Positions 2,213-57,647 of a DNA stretch of 64,000 nt are shown piece after piece. The stretch spans positions 103,809 through 167,808 of IMG/VR virus record IMGVR_UViG_3300019487_000003. One strand, 5' to 3'. Numbering within the stretch: position 1 is the first letter of the stretch; every line of letters begins with the position of its first letter. The notes under the pieces were generated by a model, which was given only the letters and a program-made list of their open reading frames with translations, was not told the DNA's origin and ran no database searches. Origin of the DNA: a virus. Position numbers and translations under genes: made by a program.

Positions 2213-2490
2213 AGAACCTTTGCAAGTTTTTGTCTGTCTTCCATTTCATGCAAAATGATTTCTTCAAGTCCTCGTTTAGCTACAGCTATAATCTGGACCA
2301 ATTCTTCAGTCTTTCTTTTGTATGTCCCGTTTTTCTTAACCTCGTCCCAGAATTCATCAACTTCCTCTTGCAATACTGCATAAAGTTCGTGGTCTGAATT
2401 ATAAGGTTTATACTTCTTCCTTACTTTTGTAATCTCGTCTTCAACAAGAGTTGAAACGTATTCAGAAATTTCACTTCGAGATAGCTTCAT
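2209..2490 (-). CDS. MazG-like nucleotide pyrophosphohydrolase domain protein (93 aa)
   Basis: The segment HELYAVLQEEVDEFWDEVKK followed by EELVQIIAVAKRG matches the helical metal-binding layout of small MazG-like/all-alpha NTP pyrophosphohydrolases common in phages: a first E-E-x-x-E helix, then a second acidic helix. The second motif lacks the usual ExxD Asp, so activity is uncertain. The ATG at 2490 is preferred over the TTG at 2499. If active, it would hydrolyse (d)NTPs to monophosphates and pyrophosphate. Confidence 0.55.
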   Translation of the reverse strand: MKLSRSEISEYVSTLVEDEITKVRKKYKPYNSDHELYAVLQEEVDEFWDEVKKNGTYKRKTEELVQIIAVAKRGLEEIILHEMEDRQKLAKVL

Positions 2491-2665
2491 ATGTTGCAAT
2501 TTCCTTTTGAATTAAAAACTCTAAAGAAGAAAAGATAAACAATGTATCTTCTTTTGAAAGAGTAAAGTAATCTTGTGATCTAGCTTGGGTTTGTTCAATC
2601 TTGTATTTCAATACAGAACTAACAATCTTTAACTTATCTAAGATTTCTTGTTGCTGTTTTTCCAT
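2471..2665 (-). CDS. hypothetical helical protein (64 aa)
   Basis: First gene after the consensus promoter at 2682-2710. The product is mostly helical with a Q/K/E-rich start and no membrane span. There is no clear Shine-Dalgarno site in the roughly 10-base leader. It overlaps the MazG-like gene by about 20 bases. Function unknown. Confidence 0.6.
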   Translation of the reverse strand: MEKQQQEILDKLKIVSSVLKYKIEQTQARSQDYFTLSKEDTLFIFSSLEFLIQKEIATYEAISK

Positions 2666-2681
2666 ATTTGTCTGCTAACCA

Positions 2682-2710
2682 ATTATACATTACAATCTCT
2701 TTACTGTCAA
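2682..2710 (-). promoter_or_regulatory. consensus sigma-70 promoter
   Basis: On the minus strand, TTGACA (2705-2710), a 17-base spacer and TATAAT (2682-2687): a perfect sigma-70 promoter. Predicted start is near 2675, about 10 bases before the ATG at 2665. The -35 box overlaps the stop codon of the upstream membrane gene, so this is an internal operon promoter. Confidence 0.8.
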
Positions 2711-2865
2711 CGTTTGAGTATTTCACACAAGCAAAGCCCTGCCCCAAAGACACCAAAGGTCAAATAAATGACATATATTTCTGGATTAGTCTCATACATG
2801 ACAACAGTCCACAATATTCCACAAATCAGTCCCAAGAGTAAAAATAGAAAGTTCTTATAGGCCAT
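2707..2865 (-). CDS. small membrane protein (52 aa)
   Basis: A 52-residue frame from the minus-strand ATG at 2865. Two hydrophobic spans (about residues 5-23 and 31-49) are separated by a polar turn (YETNPE), and the protein ends in KR. Its start lies inside the end of the upstream gene. No family recognised. Confidence 0.55.
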   Translation of the reverse strand: MAYKNFLFLLLGLICGILWTVVMYETNPEIYVIYLTFGVFGAGLCLCEILKR

Positions 2866-3061
2866 ATTTCCTTTTGACTAAAAATCGACAAATTTCTGTT
2901 TTACTGTCATACTTTCTACAATCGTCGTAATATGATACAGCAGCAGGAATCAAATTTGATTTGTATTTGGATTCTCTTTCTTGAACATCTCTGAAAATGT
3001 ATGCAACAAAACAAAGAGCAGTTAGGACTATAGCTGCAATCAAAATATTATCACTATCCAT
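2855..3061 (-). CDS. small membrane protein (68 aa)
   Basis: The ATG at 3061 has an AGGAA ribosome site seven bases upstream, so I prefer it to the ATG at 3106. The product starts MDSDN, has one span (about residues 6-23), then a charged tail rich in R, K, E and Y. Likely a bitopic inner-membrane protein; function unknown. Confidence 0.6.
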   Translation of the reverse strand: MDSDNILIAAIVLTALCFVAYIFRDVQERESKYKSNLIPAAVSYYDDCRKYDSKTEICRFLVKRKYGL

Positions 3062-3142
3062 GAGATTTCCTGTGGAAAGTAGCTCTAAAAATGAAATAAA
3101 TGACATTTAAAGCATTTCCGACCGATGTAAGGGACATATAAG

Positions 3143-3307
3143 CTATTCCTTTTTGAGCTTGTTATACATGATGAAGAATACAAACGCAAGCACCCAATCC
3201 CAAACCATCAACCCCCAATGTCCCTGCATCCATCTAATAGGAGCTACTGTTAATGTGATTATCGCAAAGAGCAGAGATGTATAACTAAGAAATTTGGAAA
3301 CTGTCAT
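3143..3307 (-). CDS. small membrane protein (54 aa)
   Basis: A 54-residue frame from the minus-strand ATG at 3307, two bases after the stop of paralogue 2. Hydrophobic segments at about residues 7-25 and 33-48 are separated by an RWMQGHW turn; the C-terminus is basic (NKLKKE). No family recognised. Confidence 0.5.
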   Translation of the reverse strand: MTVSKFLSYTSLLFAIITLTVAPIRWMQGHWGLMVWDWVLAFVFFIMYNKLKKE

Positions 3308-3308
3308 A

Positions 3309-3722
3309 CTATAGTTTTAAATTCTTGAACTTAAATAGTCCTTTGGGTTGTGATTCGATGAAATCAGCAATTCCCCTAAAATCTGTGCCTGAGCAATCGT
3401 TTATGTCTGAAAGATTAACATATGGAATATTTACGATTTGATCAAAGTGTCCCGACCTAGTGCTGAGGCCGAGTGAATCTTGCACATCTGGTGGAAGGTC
3501 AAAATGATAATTGTTATATCTATATGACCATCTATCTTGACCATTGGGAGCCTTGTGCTTGCGTAATCCCAAATCTCGTTTGAATATTTCACAAGCAACA
3601 CCGAGACAACAGTGGCCTTGTAGATTGCAAAGATCCTTTGTTGTTTGTTGGTATCGGCCCGATCTTAAAGCCTGTAACCATCTCTTAACATTCTGTTCTA
3701 CTTGTTTCTTTGTGAATTTCAT
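3309..3722 (-). CDS. CCLGVACE-family protein, paralogue 2 (137 aa)
   Basis: Same architecture as the copies at 1314, 5820 and 6227: N-terminal KKQVEQNVKRWLQALRSG, core GHCCLGVACEIF, LGL, then a C-terminal IADFIESQPKGLF block. The middle third is not conserved. The start overlaps the stop of the upstream gene as ATGA. Function unknown; the two adjacent Cys could bind metal or form a disulfide, which is inference. Confidence 0.75.
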   Translation of the reverse strand: MKFTKKQVEQNVKRWLQALRSGRYQQTTKDLCNLQGHCCLGVACEIFKRDLGLRKHKAPNGQDRWSYRYNNYHFDLPPDVQDSLGLSTRSGHFDQIVNIPYVNLSDINDCSGTDFRGIADFIESQPKGLFKFKNLKL

Positions 3723-3934
3723 GCTCGATTGCCTTTGATAACCCAGTAAGAGTTGTAAATTTCATCAATAGAACTATCTTCTGTTACTAATAATTCATGA
3801 TCATTGAACGTAAATGATACTGGACATCTGAGAATGGTTGCTAGATACCTAGCTTCTCTAATAGTATTAGATAATTCAGATCCCGGCATGACTGTTAATT
3901 CTATCGAGAAGTTTGTTAGCCTTATTTTGCTCAT
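3719..3934 (-). CDS. hypothetical protein (71 aa)
   Basis: First gene after the promoter at 3942-3970, whose -10 box ends only seven bases before this ATG, so the mRNA would have essentially no leader. The product looks like a small alpha/beta fold with no membrane span. No family recognised. Confidence 0.6.
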   Translation of the reverse strand: MSKIRLTNFSIELTVMPGSELSNTIREARYLATILRCPVSFTFNDHELLVTEDSSIDEIYNSYWVIKGNRA

Positions 3935-3941
3935 GTTGAAT

Positions 3942-3970
3942 ATTATCTCACAATCACACTATGGATGCAA
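3942..3970 (-). promoter_or_regulatory. sigma-70 promoter, near-leaderless
   Basis: On the minus strand TTGCAT (3965-3970), a 17-base spacer and GATAAT (3942-3947). Seven bases separate the -10 from the ATG at 3934, putting the expected start at or one base before the ATG. The GATAAT variant of the -10 is shared with several plus-strand early promoters. Confidence 0.65.
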
Positions 3971-3971
3971 A

Positions 3972-4187
3972 TTATTGTTTATCTGCTTTAAAATTGAATA
4001 CTTTGAAGCACCTAGGACAGTAATCATATATCCCTAATCCGTGGATACAGAAACCATAAGATGTTTCAAGCCCTATCTTTGTTACACATCTAAGTTTCTT
4101 GGGGAACAAATATCTCCAAAATGGATCTTTATCTGTCTTGGGAAGTTTACGAGAACTTTCAATTTTACACGTAGGACAAAATTTCAT
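3972..4187 (-). CDS. small zinc-binding protein (71 aa)
   Basis: The ATG at 4187 has AGGA six bases upstream and is preferred to the GTG at 4205. CPTC near the N-terminus and CPRC near the C-terminus form a four-Cys zinc site, with basic residues between. Likely a small zinc ribbon; nucleic-acid binding is possible but not shown. Confidence 0.6.
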   Translation of the reverse strand: MKFCPTCKIESSRKLPKTDKDPFWRYLFPKKLRCVTKIGLETSYGFCIHGLGIYDYCPRCFKVFNFKADKQ

Positions 4188-4195
4188 CGCAATTC

Positions 4196-4426
4196 CTAGA
4201 TACACTTATCTATTTCTTCGATAACATAAGACAATATCTTGTATTTAAAATAATCTTCATTTTGTTTTTTAAAGTCTTCACTTGCTAAAACCCTTTTGAA
4301 GTATTTTGATCCATCTCTGTTGCGAATTGTATAATCTGTGCTAATATGACGGCCATTATCATCTAGGTTTATAGCTGCCCAATCTCTCGGATTGTTTTCA
4401 TAGGAAGCAATAACGTTTAATTTCAT
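4196..4426 (-). CDS. hypothetical protein (76 aa)
   Basis: Soluble, charged product with a beta-rich N-terminal half (MKLNVIASYENNPRDW) and a helical, lysine-rich C-terminal half. It lies between a small membrane gene and a zinc-ribbon gene in the same operon. No family recognised. Confidence 0.6.
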   Translation of the reverse strand: MKLNVIASYENNPRDWAAINLDDNGRHISTDYTIRNRDGSKYFKRVLASEDFKKQNEDYFKYKILSYVIEEIDKCI

Positions 4427-4427
4427 A

Positions 4428-4595
4428 TTAGAAAAGCAAAACGAGTAGCCCGTAAACGACTGCTACAAAGAAAGTAACGAGCCCGGCAGCCAATTCACGA
4501 AGCGGCTTCCATTCAGGATGCAGATTTGTGAAATAGTTGGCAGCATAGAAAGAAGCACCAAAAGAAACAGCTAAAACAAGAACAAACGCGAACAT
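4428..4595 (-). CDS. small membrane protein (55 aa)
   Basis: The ATG at 4595 follows a GAGGA ribosome site and is preferred to the upstream start at 4637, which would run into the neighbouring gene. Two clear membrane spans (about residues 2-18 and 36-55) flank a polar loop (NLHPEWKP). Function unknown. Confidence 0.6.
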   Translation of the reverse strand: MFAFVLVLAVSFGASFYAANYFTNLHPEWKPLRELAAGLVTFFVAVVYGLLVLLF

Positions 4596-4605
4596 ATTTT
4601 CCTCA

Positions 4606-4836
4606 CTAATTAAAAGACAACCAAATAATACGAGCAAATATCCAGAAAGCTGAGATAGTTATAACAATTCCCATTGCAGCTAAGGGATAGATAAAAATCT
4701 TGTGTGTCAGATCACGATATTTGTCATACTGAATGACACAACGACGACACAAAAGATGTTGAATAGCTGGACCCTCTGGACACAAGTCAGTTCTTCTAGC
4801 AGTGGCCTTACACTTATTACAATTTTGACATTTCAT
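4606..4836 (-). CDS. zinc-finger membrane protein (76 aa)
   Basis: Six Cys in the first 33 residues (CQNCNKC, then C19, then CRRC) suggest a small zinc site. A strong membrane span follows (about residues 48-72). The layout is a cytoplasmic zinc module tethered to the inner membrane. It overlaps the upstream gene by four bases. No family recognised. Confidence 0.6.
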   Translation of the reverse strand: MKCQNCNKCKATARRTDLCPEGPAIQHLLCRRCVIQYDKYRDLTHKIFIYPLAAMGIVITISAFWIFARIIWLSFN

Positions 4837-5207
4837 ATAATTCTCATTATGATTTTGGAATCAGTTATAGATACACTAAATCCTAATTTTTCTAAGAACA
4901 TTGCAGAAAATGTTAAAAGCTCTTTTGTTACTTCAAAGTGATAGTTACTGAAGTCAACAGTCACAGATCCATGTGTATTCAATGCTAAAAATGCATTTGG
5001 ATCTTCACATGCTTTTGCACAATTAAATAGAATATCAGCAAATTGCATCAAATCACTTGAAGTTTTTATAAAACCCGAATCACAAGAATTCTGTTGATTC
5101 AGAGTTGAAATGATTTCATTGACTGTTTTTTCTAATCCTATTCCCCTGTTTTCATAATATTTTCTTACAATTTGTGCAACTTCCTGTTTTATAGTATTTT
5201 CATTCAT
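4833..5207 (-). CDS. hypothetical protein (124 aa)
   Basis: Mostly helical soluble protein with no membrane span and few Cys. The ATG has a TAGGA-like site upstream. The stop overlaps the next start as ATGA. I do not recognise the family. Confidence 0.65.
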   Translation of the reverse strand: MNENTIKQEVAQIVRKYYENRGIGLEKTVNEIISTLNQQNSCDSGFIKTSSDLMQFADILFNCAKACEDPNAFLALNTHGSVTVDFSNYHFEVTKELLTFSAMFLEKLGFSVSITDSKIIMRII

Positions 5208-5212
5208 AAATC

Positions 5213-5371
5213 CTACTTGAATATCTTCCGAAGAGAAAAAAGAATAACAGCTAAAAATGAATGTATTGCAACGGCCGCTGGCCAGGGGCCGAACTTTTCT
5301 GCTAGAACGCAGAAGGCAAACGTTATAATCATAAATGCAATAAGAGCAAAAAAGAACCTTACATCATTCAT
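5213..5371 (-). CDS. small membrane protein (52 aa)
   Basis: The ATG at 5371 overlaps the upstream stop as ATGA and is preferred to the longer frame from 5407. Two hydrophobic spans (about residues 5-22 and 28-45) are joined by AEKFGPWP; the C-terminus is basic. Function unknown. Confidence 0.6.
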   Translation of the reverse strand: MNDVRFFFALIAFMIITFAFCVLAEKFGPWPAAVAIHSFLAVILFSLRKIFK

Positions 5372-35618: not shown

Positions 35619-36170
35619 ATGTTTATAATCTATCTTGTCAAAAACAAAATCAATGGTAAGAAATATATTGGGTTTACTTCTCAATTTCTTAAACATAGGA
35701 TGATTAAGCATTTTTCTTCCGCCAAGCACGGTTCACCATACAAATTTCATAGGGCCATAAGAAAATACGGAAAAGAAATGTTTTTGTTTTCTGAAATTTT
35801 TTCGATATTAACAACAAATAAACAAGAAATCAAAGAACTAGAATTACATTTTATACAAAAATATGACACTTTGAAAGAATATAATTCCACAGAAAAATTT
35901 GGCGGAGTAACATATCACACACAAGAAACTAAAAAGAAGATGTCAAGGGCATGGACTAAAGAACGTAAAAAGAAGTTGATAGAAAGAAACAAGAGTAATT
36001 CTTATGCTGAATATCAACGCCAATCATTCACAGTTAGAAATCCACAAGGACTGGTTGTTAAATTTACTGGCCTAAATAACTTTGCTAAAGAAAATGGTTT
36101 ATCTCCCAGCGGATTAAGCTGTCTCCTTTCTGGAAAGAGAGATAAATATAGAGATTGGACTAGAGTATAA
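35619..36170 (+). CDS. free-standing GIY-YIG homing endonuclease (183 aa)
   Basis: GIY-YIG module at the N-terminus: IIYLVKNKINGKKYIGFT, an Arg in LKHRMIKH, and the catalytic Glu in ELELHFIQKYDT. A NUMOD-type segment follows (KKKMSRAWTKERKKKL), and a C-terminal helix-turn-helix part (NNFAKENGLSPSGLSCLLSG). It resembles T4 Seg enzymes. It lies between virion genes and probably cuts the homologous site in related phages. Confidence 0.88.
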   Translation: MFIIYLVKNKINGKKYIGFTSQFLKHRMIKHFSSAKHGSPYKFHRAIRKYGKEMFLFSEIFSILTTNKQEIKELELHFIQKYDTLKEYNSTEKFGGVTYHTQETKKKMSRAWTKERKKKLIERNKSNSYAEYQRQSFTVRNPQGLVVKFTGLNNFAKENGLSPSGLSCLLSGKRDKYRDWTRV

Positions 36171-54906: not shown

Positions 54907-56430
54907 ATGGTCGAATCTACAGATGATCAAAAAGATGTAATGCAATTTTACATGGGAAACCCCCATTTAAAAGCTGCAAACGTCAAGCTATCATATACTC
55001 AAGATCAACTTGAAGAATATATTCGTTGTTCTAGTGATCCTTTCTATTTTATAGAAAAATATGTGAAGATTGTTACAATCGATGAGGGCCTTGTACCATT
55101 CAAGCTATGGGATTTTCAAAAGAATCTAATACAAAATTTTATTCAAAATCGTTACACAATCGCTAAACTACCAAGACAGGTAGGAAAATCTACAACTACT
55201 GTTTCATATTTGTTATGGGTTGTTTTATTTCAACCAACACAAAATGTCGCCATTCTTGCTAACAAGTCGGCAACAGCTAGAGAAATTTTGGGGCGTTTGC
55301 AAACCTCATATGAGAATATTCCCCTTTGGTTGCAACAAGGTGTTAAATCTTGGAACAAGGGAAGTCTTGAATTAGAAAACAATTCAAAAATTCTTGCTGC
55401 TTCGACATCTGATAGCTCAGTTCGAGGAAATACTTATAATATAATTTTCTTAGATGAATTTGCGTTCGTGCCACATAACATTGCCGAAGAATTCATGAGT
55501 TCTGTATACCCTACTATTACTTCTGGGAAGACATCAAAGGTTATAATGGTATCGACCCCTAAGGGTATGAACCTTTTCTATAAGTATTGGACCGAAGCTA
55601 TCAATAAAAGAAATCTCTATATTCCAATTGAGATTCATTGGTCAAATGTTCCCGGAAGAGATAAGCAATGGGCAGAAGATCAAGTTAAGCAGTTAGGGCA
55701 AGAGCAATTTGATCAAGAGTTTGGTTGTGTTGCTGGAGATACGATTATTGAAACTATTAACGGAAAAATGACTATAGAGAATTTGTTTTTGATGCACGAA
55801 GAAATTTATGTAGTTTATAAAATCGTCAGAGATGATGGTAAAATTTATATTGGAACAACAAAAAAAGATACAATCGAAAAAAGAATGGTCGCTCATAGTA
55901 AAACAAAAAGATTTAAAAATCATACATTCGATTATTTTATCTTAGAAGAATCTACATCAAAAGATTATATAGATAATAAGGAAGAATATTATATAAAATT
56001 TTTTGATTCGTATAGAAATGGATTAAACGAATCGTTAAATGGTAAGGGTAATCATCATTCAAAAAATTTTACAACTCTAGGTTATAAATTTTCTGAGCAA
56101 TCAAAAAGAAAAATGTCTAAATCTGCCAAAGAAAGAATACAAAGAAATGGTCCAATTAAACAGTATTTTACCAAAAAATCTCTAAACAAAATTGCCGAAA
56201 AGGCATCAAAAAGATGTAAAGGTAAAATAGCTTCCTATAAAATTGATACGAAAATATATAATGCTTTGAGGCAGAAATTTAATATATTTAAACCATTTTT
56301 TATTCCATATGTTGCAAAAAATGGTAAAATTGTGACGGCAGAAAGAGCCTTTGCTATACAAAATAAAAATGTATTCAATATATCTATACCCCAAATAATA
56401 AACATCCTTCAATATAAAACATTAAGATAA
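54907..56430 (+). CDS. gp17: large terminase N-part + N-intein + GIY-YIG endonuclease (507 aa)
   Basis: Residues 1-273 are the terminase ATPase: LPRQVGKSTT (88-97, Walker A) and IIFLDEFAFV (179-188, Walker B). At Cys 274 the N-intein begins (CVAGDTIIETINGKMTIENL). From about residue 299 the same frame continues as a GIY-YIG nuclease (VYKIV, YIGTT, EKRM, Glu in EEYYIKFF) with a NUMOD3-like block (KRKMSKSAKERI). The TAA overlaps the next ATG. After trans-splicing with the next product the nuclease would be removed with the N-intein. Confidence 0.88.
   Translation: MVESTDDQKDVMQFYMGNPHLKAANVKLSYTQDQLEEYIRCSSDPFYFIEKYVKIVTIDEGLVPFKLWDFQKNLIQNFIQNRYTIAKLPRQVGKSTTTVSYLLWVVLFQPTQNVAILANKSATAREILGRLQTSYENIPLWLQQGVKSWNKGSLELENNSKILAASTSDSSVRGNTYNIIFLDEFAFVPHNIAEEFMSSVYPTITSGKTSKVIMVSTPKGMNLFYKYWTEAINKRNLYIPIEIHWSNVPGRDKQWAEDQVKQLGQEQFDQEFGCVAGDTIIETINGKMTIENLFLMHEEIYVVYKIVRDDGKIYIGTTKKDTIEKRMVAHSKTKRFKNHTFDYFILEESTSKDYIDNKEEYYIKFFDSYRNGLNESLNGKGNHHSKNFTTLGYKFSEQSKRKMSKSAKERIQRNGPIKQYFTKKSLNKIAEKASKRCKGKIASYKIDTKIYNALRQKFNIFKPFFIPYVAKNGKIVTAERAFAIQNKNVFNISIPQIINILQYKTLR
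55726..55800 (+). other. N-intein of atypically split TerL intein (25 aa)
   Basis: Starts with the nucleophile Cys after extein EFG and holds block A (GDTIIETINGK). At about 25 residues before the nuclease it matches the very short N-inteins of AceL-TerL-type split inteins rather than the usual ~100. Confidence 0.8.
55801..56427 (+). other. GIY-YIG homing endonuclease domain fused to N-intein
   Basis: About 209 codons in frame with the N-intein. GIY-YIG strands, Arg and Glu are present. A NUMOD3-like motif follows, then a basic C-terminal region and an IPQIINILQ helix that could contact DNA. It lies between intein blocks A and B, not at the usual B/F endonuclease position. Confidence 0.78.
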
Positions 56431-56738
56431 TGATAAATTTAATTAAAACGCCAATAGGATTTGAAAATTATTCTGGTATTAGAAAATCAGAGTATGATGA
56501 ATATTACTTAATCAAGTTTCATAATGGCCAGGAAATGAAATGCTCCATAAATCACCCATTTATCACGATTGATGGTTTAATTCTTGCCAAAAACCTAAAC
56601 AATAAAATTGAGGTTCTAACTAAGGTAGGGGGAACATTCATAAAATATAAAAGACTCATAAAAAAGAAAATTTTTTTATATGATATATTAAATACTCAAA
56701 CCCATACATATTATACAAATGATATATTAAGTCATAAC
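56430..56738 (+). other. C-intein of split TerL intein (103 aa)
   Basis: Contains GFENYSG, TxxH-type block B (CSINHP), and blocks F and G ending SHN before Cys. Block B sits here rather than in the N-part, which defines the atypical split near the N-terminus. Confidence 0.82.
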
Positions 56739-57647
56739 TGCGAATTTTTGGGTTCATCGGATACGCTTGTAAGTTCGGCAAAACTTGCCACATTGGCGTG
56801 GATTACTGCAATGTGGAGTAGCAAAAAACTTGATGTATACGAAACTCCTCAAGAGGGACATTCTTATATGATAACTGTGGACACTAGTAGGGGCCAGGGT
56901 GCTGACTACTCTGCTTTCTCAGTTTTCGATGTAACAACTGCACCATATCGTCAAGTCGCAAAATTTAGAGATTCAGAAATACCTTCAATGGTATACCCGA
57001 ACATCATTTTCAATGTGGCCACAAATTACAATAAAGCATTTATTCTTGTCGAAACAAATGATATAGGATCACAGGTTGGTGACATCTTATTTCATGAGTT
57101 GGAATATGAACATATGTTTTGCACTATAACAATGGGCCGAGGCGGCCAAAAGATTTCATTGGGTATGCGAAAGAATGGAAAAATAGGAGTTAAGACAAGT
57201 GCTCCTATGAAATCCATAGGTTGTTCAAACCTTAAAACATTGATTGAAGGAGACCAGCTTATTATTAAAGACTTCGATACTATCTCAGAACTTACAACAT
57301 TTGTCAAAAAAGCAAAGAGCTATGAGGCCGAAGAAGGTCGAAATGATGACTTAGTAATGACTCTTGTAATGTTCTCTTGGTTGGTAGCACAACCCATGTT
57401 TAAAGAGATGACAGATGTGAATATTCAAAAGCGTTTATTTGAAGAAAGAGAAAAAAATTTGGAAGAAACATCTTTACCATTCGGTTTTAAAAGCAGTGCA
57501 GAGGAAAAAGAAACGTTTGTGGATGAAGGAGGTACTCGTTGGGAGTTTGTTCAAGAAAAGGAAGCGATAAAAAAGATGGCCAAGTGGTGGAATAATCCCA
57601 ATTTTCTTATGGAAGACGATGACACGGAACCTCCGAACACATTGTAA
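56430..57647 (+). CDS. gp17: C-intein + large terminase nuclease part (405 aa)
   Basis: The ATG overlaps the previous stop (TAATG). Residues 1-103 are the C-intein: block B CSINHPFIT, block F YDILNTQTHTYYT, block G DILSHN with penultimate His and final Asn, then Cys +1. From Cys 104 the terminase resumes (CEFLGSSDTLVSS), with nuclease residues in ITVDTSRGQGADY (Asp about 151), VETNDIGSQVGD and GRNDDLVMTL. The spliced protein would be about 575 residues, near T4 gp17 (610). Confidence 0.88.
   Translation: MINLIKTPIGFENYSGIRKSEYDEYYLIKFHNGQEMKCSINHPFITIDGLILAKNLNNKIEVLTKVGGTFIKYKRLIKKKIFLYDILNTQTHTYYTNDILSHNCEFLGSSDTLVSSAKLATLAWITAMWSSKKLDVYETPQEGHSYMITVDTSRGQGADYSAFSVFDVTTAPYRQVAKFRDSEIPSMVYPNIIFNVATNYNKAFILVETNDIGSQVGDILFHELEYEHMFCTITMGRGGQKISLGMRKNGKIGVKTSAPMKSIGCSNLKTLIEGDQLIIKDFDTISELTTFVKKAKSYEAEEGRNDDLVMTLVMFSWLVAQPMFKEMTDVNIQKRLFEEREKNLEETSLPFGFKSSAEEKETFVDEGGTRWEFVQEKEAIKKMAKWWNNPNFLMEDDDTEPPNTL

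What the first reader, a model, noticed from the sequence alone, without database searches (positions are those of the whole stretch)
54907..57647. Large terminase broken by an atypically split intein whose N-half carries a fused GIY-YIG endonuclease
Seen: terminase reads to EFG, then Cys 274 starts an intein block A. After only ~25 residues the same frame becomes a GIY-YIG nuclease. It stops at a TAA that overlaps a new ATG, and the second frame holds block B, F and G ending His-Asn before Cys and resumes terminase with CEFLGSSDTL. Known: AceL-TerL-type inteins at this protein have a ~25-residue N-intein. Inference: a continuous intein was invaded by a homing endonuclease between blocks A and B, then split at its end, leaving the nuclease attached to the N-intein. 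Functional terminase would need trans-splicing, and the nuclease is released with the N-intein.
Basis: partly seen in the sequence, partly recalled or inferred. Interest (0 to 1): 0.92.

Follow-up and report, generated by a model that had tools for sequence, protein, structure and literature searches.

The report
Split terminase intein carrying fused nuclease
In this T4-like phage the DNA-packaging motor gene is cut in two by a self-splicing protein element whose first half carries a DNA-cutting enzyme fused to its tail; the element is a real, recurring variant of a known family, in which the nuclease is normally a separate gene.

Summary
TerL runs 54907-55725. A 26-aa N-intein starts at Cys274 (55726) and continues without stop or linker into a GIY-YIG nuclease (to 56427). 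TAA shares one base with the ATG of a second ORF holding a 103-aa C-intein (56430-56738, ending His-Asn) and the rest of TerL. The joined exteins give a 575-aa TerL that aligns without gaps across the junction to intein-less gp17. It is not a sequencing error: another contig (L229) and ten Vibrio isolates (three alleles) have the same architecture. Split inteins at this terL site are common, usually as three genes: TerLN-IntN, free-standing nuclease, IntC-TerLC. The window's C-intein lies in a GOS-TerL-like clade whose 11 other members are already split and lack GIY-YIG; its nuclease is closest to free-standing ones. So the intein was split first, and a nuclease was later fused to IntN. Vibrio phage VP-1 versus VAP7 (97-98% identical flanks) shows the whole cassette as a precise ~1,070-bp insertion. 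Trans-splicing and homing remain untested. Verdict: a new variant of a known kind.

The parts
54907..55725 (+). N-terminal half of TerL (N-extein, 273 aa, ATPase domain, Walker A PRQVGKST, Walker B LDEF)
   Evidence: Terminase_6N E 5e-19; phrog_5989 terminase E 7e-69
55726..55803 (+). N-intein, 26 aa (CVAGDTIIETINGKMTIENLFLMHEE), Cys1
   Evidence: Aligned with N-inteins of AceL-like and contiguous relatives; length fits published IntN of 25 aa (AceL-TerL) and 37 aa (GOS-TerL) (PMC11766414)
55804..56010 (+). GIY-YIG catalytic domain, fused in frame to the N-intein with no linker
   Evidence: PF01541 E 1e-5; catalytic residues invariant; AF2 pLDDT above 90
56011..56427 (+). C-terminal part of the nuclease: weak NUMOD3 motif and helical, presumed DNA-binding tail
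   Evidence: NUMOD3 E 0.04 in the window, 2e-6 in relatives; helices at pLDDT about 91-94 near the end
56428..56432 (+). TAATG: stop of ORF1 sharing one base with start of ORF2 (presumed translational coupling)
   Evidence: Sequence; overlapping stop/start also in L229 (ATGA), 1.244.A and K469 (the last two with a clear Shine-Dalgarno)
56430..56738 (+). C-intein, 103 aa, block B (SINHPF), blocks F/G ending His-Asn
   Evidence: CatC 6dsl E 1e-12; catalytic residues invariant in relatives
56739..57647 (+). C-terminal half of TerL (C-extein, Cys+1 EFLGSSDTL..., nuclease domain)
   Evidence: Terminase_6C E 7e-12; gapless alignment of the joined exteins with P-HM1 and S-H38

Best explanation
An atypically split, Cys1/Cys+1, class 1 intein of the GOS/AceL-TerL kind interrupts terL. 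ORF1 (59 kDa) makes TerL-N, IntN and a GIY-YIG homing endonuclease in one chain; ORF2 (46 kDa), translated by termination-reinitiation at TAATG, makes IntC and TerL-C. IntN and IntC meet, splice in trans, and release a 575-aa terminase plus a non-covalent complex of IntC with IntN-GIY (27 kDa). The nuclease would cut intein-less terL near QEF|CEFLG, and repair from the donor would copy the roughly 1-kb cassette as a unit. The architecture derives from the common three-gene form (IntN, free nuclease often with its own late promoter, IntC) by in-frame fusion of the nuclease to IntN. Shown: sequence, architecture, conserved catalytic residues, recurrence, cassette-level presence/absence in VP-1 vs VAP7. 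Inferred: splicing, cleavage, homing, translational coupling.
For: Domain and residue evidence. Same architecture in L229 and in Vibrio isolates. Related AceL-, GOS- and Cat-TerL split inteins are reported to trans-splice (PMC11766414). VP-1 carries the cassette as a precise ~1,070-bp insert relative to VAP7, BX-1 and SD25. C-intein tree: split is ancestral to the fusion. Nuclease tree: the fused nucleases nest among free-standing ones. Ancestral nuclease start codon replaced by ATT in window and L229, and L229 has no ATG in the junction, so its nuclease can hardly be made except as a fusion. The cassette is the most AT-rich 1 kb of the window. No second TerL in the record.
Against: No splicing or cleavage assay exists for this protein. 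N-intein block A is short and is recognised by alignment only (no PDB hit). The model of IntN-GIY has low overall pTM (0.42) and Foldseek found no significant PDB match. The nuclease tree is rooted at the midpoint; one origin for all fused nucleases is not rejected (AU p 0.21). ORF2 of the window lacks a strong Shine-Dalgarno. dN/dS of the nuclease could not be measured (dS saturated).
Confidence: 0.85

Rival explanations
1. One reading: a contiguous intein was first invaded by the nuclease between blocks A and B, and a stop/start later split it after the nuclease.
For: Contiguous inteins exist at the same site (L024, L113, L224), so a contiguous ancestor is conceivable; the Vibrio group could have arisen in this way.
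Against: All 11 closest C-inteins of window/L229 are split at this site without GIY-YIG; the nuclease's relatives are free-standing with their own start; no contiguous intein with a nested GIY-YIG at this site was found among 97 unique C-inteins.
Confidence: 0.1
2. The halves do not splice: TerL works as a non-covalent two-subunit enzyme (genes in pieces), with a decaying intein.
For: PMC10448857 cites a phage ribonucleotide reductase split by a homing endonuclease that stays functional as two pieces.
Against: All tested intein catalytic residues are intact and the intein ends are precise; degeneration would be expected without selection for splicing.
Confidence: 0.06
3. The nuclease is actually made alone from an internal start, and the apparent fusion is of no consequence.
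For: An in-frame ATG (Met23 of IntN) lies a few codons before the nuclease domain in the window; VP-1, 1.244.A and K469 also have a Met near the junction.
Against: There is no stop codon, so the fusion must be made whenever ORF1 is translated to its end; no Shine-Dalgarno before that ATG; that Met matches the end of the IntN helix in non-fused inteins (LYERM, EEAYDLM); L229 has no ATG at the junction.
Confidence: 0.1
4. Sequencing or assembly artefact created the split.
For: The window itself is a single metagenomic contig.
Against: Independent contig L229 and ten isolates show the same two-ORF layout with overlapping stop/start.
Confidence: 0.01

Closest known systems
GOS-TerL, AceL-TerL and the consensus Cat-TerL atypically split inteins (reviewed in PMC11766414)
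   Same: Same host protein, very short IntN (25-37 aa) and about 104-115-aa IntC, Cys+1; C-intein matches CatC 6dsl; the C-intein tree places the window in a mostly Ser1, GOS-like clade
   Different: In the window IntN does not end but runs on into a GIY-YIG nuclease; Cys1 where the sister clade mostly has Ser1
Fractured genes (split intein halves around a free-standing homing endonuclease; Dassa et al. 2009, not held in the library; AceL-NrdHF with an intervening GIY-YIG, PMC7891396)
   Same: Essential phage gene split by a split intein with a nuclease between the halves
   Different: There the nuclease is a separate gene, at this terL site often with a TATAAATA late promoter (32 of 41 loci); here it is fused to IntN and has no such promoter
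Aeromonas phage PX29 gp17A/gp17B (GenBank note: 17A 'contains putative N-intein', 17B 'contains putative GIY-YIG endonuclease and C-intein')
   Same: Same terL site, split intein, GIY-YIG fused to one half
   Different: Mirror image: nuclease fused in front of the C-intein, not behind the N-intein
Vibrio phage VP-1, 1.244.A/1.255.O and K469-type TerL (not annotated as inteins)
   Same: Same architecture: TerL-N, IntN and GIY-YIG in one ORF; overlapping IntC-TerL-C ORF
   Different: Distant sequences (about 30% identity); separate branch on the C-intein tree
Canonical large inteins with a nested homing endonuclease
   Same: Splicing and nuclease functions in one element
   Different: There the nuclease lies between blocks B and F of one chain; here after block A, at the split point, in a two-chain intein

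Membership tests
Atypically split TerL intein (AceL/GOS/Cat type) | Insertion in TerL between QEFx and C(E/S)FxGS | tested here: met
Atypically split TerL intein (AceL/GOS/Cat type) | N-intein of about 25-37 aa with nucleophile at position 1 | tested here: met
   26 aa, Cys1; published lengths in PMC11766414
Atypically split TerL intein (AceL/GOS/Cat type) | C-intein of about 104-115 aa with block B His, His-Asn end, Cys+1 | tested here: met
   103 aa
Atypically split TerL intein (AceL/GOS/Cat type) | Protein trans-splicing activity | not testable with these tools
   Needs co-expression or mixing of the two halves
GIY-YIG homing endonuclease | GIY-YIG domain with conserved Tyr, Tyr, Arg, Glu, Asn | tested here: met
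GIY-YIG homing endonuclease | Site-specific cleavage of the intein-less allele and transfer of the cassette | tested here: inconclusive
   Cleavage not testable; presence/absence of the whole cassette in VP-1 vs VAP7, BX-1, SD25, with raised divergence over about 2 kb upstream, fits homing
Fractured gene with free-standing nuclease (Dassa type) | Nuclease is a separate ORF between the split-intein halves | tested here: not met
   In the window it is in frame with IntN without a stop
Group I intron | Rfam intron structure around the nuclease ORF | tested here: not met
   No Rfam match in the window
Contiguous intein | Both halves in one ORF | tested here: not met
   Stop at 56428-56430, second ORF in another frame

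The most novel reading that the evidence does not exclude
The nuclease is under post-translational control by trans-splicing: tethered to the packaging ATPase half until IntC arrives, then released as part of a two-chain intein-endonuclease, so that homing is tied to terminase maturation. N-side fusion arose at least twice as an alternative way to keep nuclease and intein together.
Probability: 0.25. Interest if true: 0.72.

Novelty: new variant of a known kind. Interest (0 to 1): 0.56.

Why it matters
It suggests that a homing nuclease can be attached to the very short N-half of an atypically split intein without destroying an essential host gene. It completes a series of natural states at one site (contiguous, split without nuclease, split with free nuclease, fused to the N-half, fused to the C-half), so the evolution of split inteins and fractured genes becomes testable. 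For engineers, it suggests that the short IntN tolerates a C-terminal cargo of over 200 aa. The VP-1/VAP7 pair is a ready-made isolate system for a homing experiment.

Tried and rejected
Group I intron: no Rfam match. Sequencing error: refuted for the class by L229 and isolates. Intact second terL in the record: none, although the record may be incomplete. A search of IMG/VR with the single ORF2 protein found nothing because the patterns were too specific; alignments worked. Further VP-1-like fusions in IMG/VR: none. Further window-like fusions in IMG/VR: only the L229 contig again; in genome contigs none. PDB search with the 28-aa N-intein: too short. AF2 of the whole ORF1 without an alignment failed (mean pLDDT 33) and is not used. 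Foldseek to PDB gave only non-significant hits. dN/dS of the fused nuclease between 1.244.A and K469 was saturated. Sigma-70 promoter matches in the region are at chance level. Literature searches of the open library found no report of an N-intein-fused GIY-YIG, but key intein papers are not held.

Full report
What is in the sequence. ORF1 (54907-56430, 507 aa) and ORF2 (56430-57647, 405 aa) share one base in TAATG. ORF1 holds the TerL ATPase half, then Cys274, 26 residues of N-intein and, without linker, a GIY-YIG domain (Pfam, above cut-off); ORF2 holds a C-intein and the TerL nuclease half. The C-intein is closest among solved structures to CatC, the consensus of the atypically split TerL inteins. 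Joining the exteins gives 575 aa that align without gaps across the junction with gp17 of P-HM1 and S-H38. The record has no other TerL. The neighbouring structural genes and TATAAATA late-promoter sites mark a T4-like phage; the closest isolate TerL proteins are from cyanophages at about 50% identity.

Is it functional by sequence? The seven GIY-YIG positions Y, Y, G, R, H, E, N are invariant in nine aligned sequences. C-intein block-B His and the terminal His-Asn are invariant in 91 of 91. AF2 models the nuclease domain with pLDDT above 90, but the overall arrangement is uncertain (pTM 0.42). Structure search in viral models returns first a 506-aa 'Terminase-like' phage protein (51% identity) and the VP-1 terminase, that is, proteins that appear to have the same fusion.

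Relatives. A census of terL loci (IMG/VR plus isolates; 97 unique C-inteins, of which 74 passed the length filter and have both TerL halves in the contig) gave 41 split with a free-standing nuclease of the GIY-YIG-related set, 24 split without a GIY-YIG, 3 contiguous, 5 fused at the N-side (window, L229, VP-1, 1.244.A, K469) and 1 fused at the C-side (PX29). Including near-copies, ten Vibrio isolates carry the N-side fusion; none of the records I opened is annotated as an intein. PX29 is annotated as a split intein with GIY-YIG on the C-side.

Order of events. The C-intein tree puts window and L229 (93) in a clade (99) with 11 split inteins that resemble GOS-TerL (Ser1 in most), either with no nuclease or with a free-standing Vsr-like one. 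The nuclease tree puts window and L229 (97) next to free-standing GIY-YIG genes of L027 (90) and L194 (86). In those, the start Met aligns with an Ile (ATT) of the fused forms. L229 has no ATG in the junction at all. The simplest history is therefore: split intein first, a nuclease arriving or being exchanged, then in-frame fusion with loss of the IntN stop, the promoter segment and the start codon. The Vibrio group is separate on the C-intein tree (at least two changes forced), but a single origin of the fused nuclease is not rejected (AU p 0.21).

Mobility. VP-1 and VAP7, filed under one species, are 98.5% and 97.2% identical on the two sides; VP-1 has the complete cassette as a precise insertion of about 1,070 bp at the Cys codon; BX-1 and SD25 are also empty. 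Mismatches are raised over about 2 kb upstream of the insert (mostly 3-9 per 200 bp) against about 1 per 200 bp beyond, which fits co-conversion; downstream the trend is the reverse, so this point is only suggestive. In the window the cassette is the lowest-GC kilobase of 64 kb.

Translation. Stop/start overlap recurs: TAATG in the window, ATGA in L229, 11-14 nt in 1.244.A and K469, the last two with clear Shine-Dalgarno sequences. Coupled translation of the two halves is therefore likely, though inferred.

What is known. AceL-TerL and GOS-TerL are reported to splice in trans, and GOS-TerL also accepts Cys1 (PMC11766414). A fractured nrdHF gene with an intervening GIY-YIG gene is described for AceL-NrdHF (PMC7891396). 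I found no description of a GIY-YIG fused behind an N-intein in the library held, but the founding paper on fractured genes is not held and I could not read the AceL and GOS papers themselves, so priority is uncertain.

Verdict.

Noticed in passing
L021, L023, L123, L132, L137, L146, L150, L195, L199, L214, L226 and others, just after the IntN stop: In the three-gene forms the IntN stop is followed by a ~14-bp copy of the terL homing-site right half (tgTGAGTTYTTDGG, encoding CEFLG/CEFFG) and directly by a T4-type late promoter TATAAATA, then the nuclease start. TATAAATA is within -30..+60 of the stop in 32 of 41 loci (1.8% expected), the target-like copy in 23 of 41. The window's fused form lacks both.
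   Followed up: partly
L028, L029, L039, L129, L152, L170, L225: At the same place the free nuclease has a different, HNH-like head (e.g. IPTDENGFKYEIHHIDGN) but matches the same C-terminal ~95 residues of the GIY-YIG profile, which suggests a swapped catalytic head on a shared DNA-binding tail.
   Followed up: partly
L224 (reverse strand) 3-1877: An AceL-TerL-like intein that is contiguous, without stop or nuclease, next to split relatives (L132): a possible natural re-fusion or ancestral state.
   Followed up: no
L010 and L013 (Krischvirus phiS, JK32) 2239-3990 / 3971-5350: A second split intein at a different TerL site (YIDE|C) whose N-half ORF carries a long extension that looks like a Vsr/PD-(D/E)XK-type nuclease; so N-half fusion may not be limited to GIY-YIG.
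   Followed up: partly
L002 and L015 (VP-1, VAP7) TerL: A contiguous intein at the Walker A site (SGK|CVDHDT...SHN|TTVV) in both phages; VP-1 TerL thus carries two inteins, one contiguous and one split.
   Followed up: no
35619-36170: Free-standing GIY-YIG ORF (183 aa, MFIIYLVKNKINGKKYIGFTSQ...) between two large structural genes of the window, apparently another homing nuclease.
   Followed up: no
29912, 52610, 57667: Only three TATAAATA late-promoter-like sites on the + strand of the window and none on the - strand; 57667 precedes the tail sheath gene.
   Followed up: no
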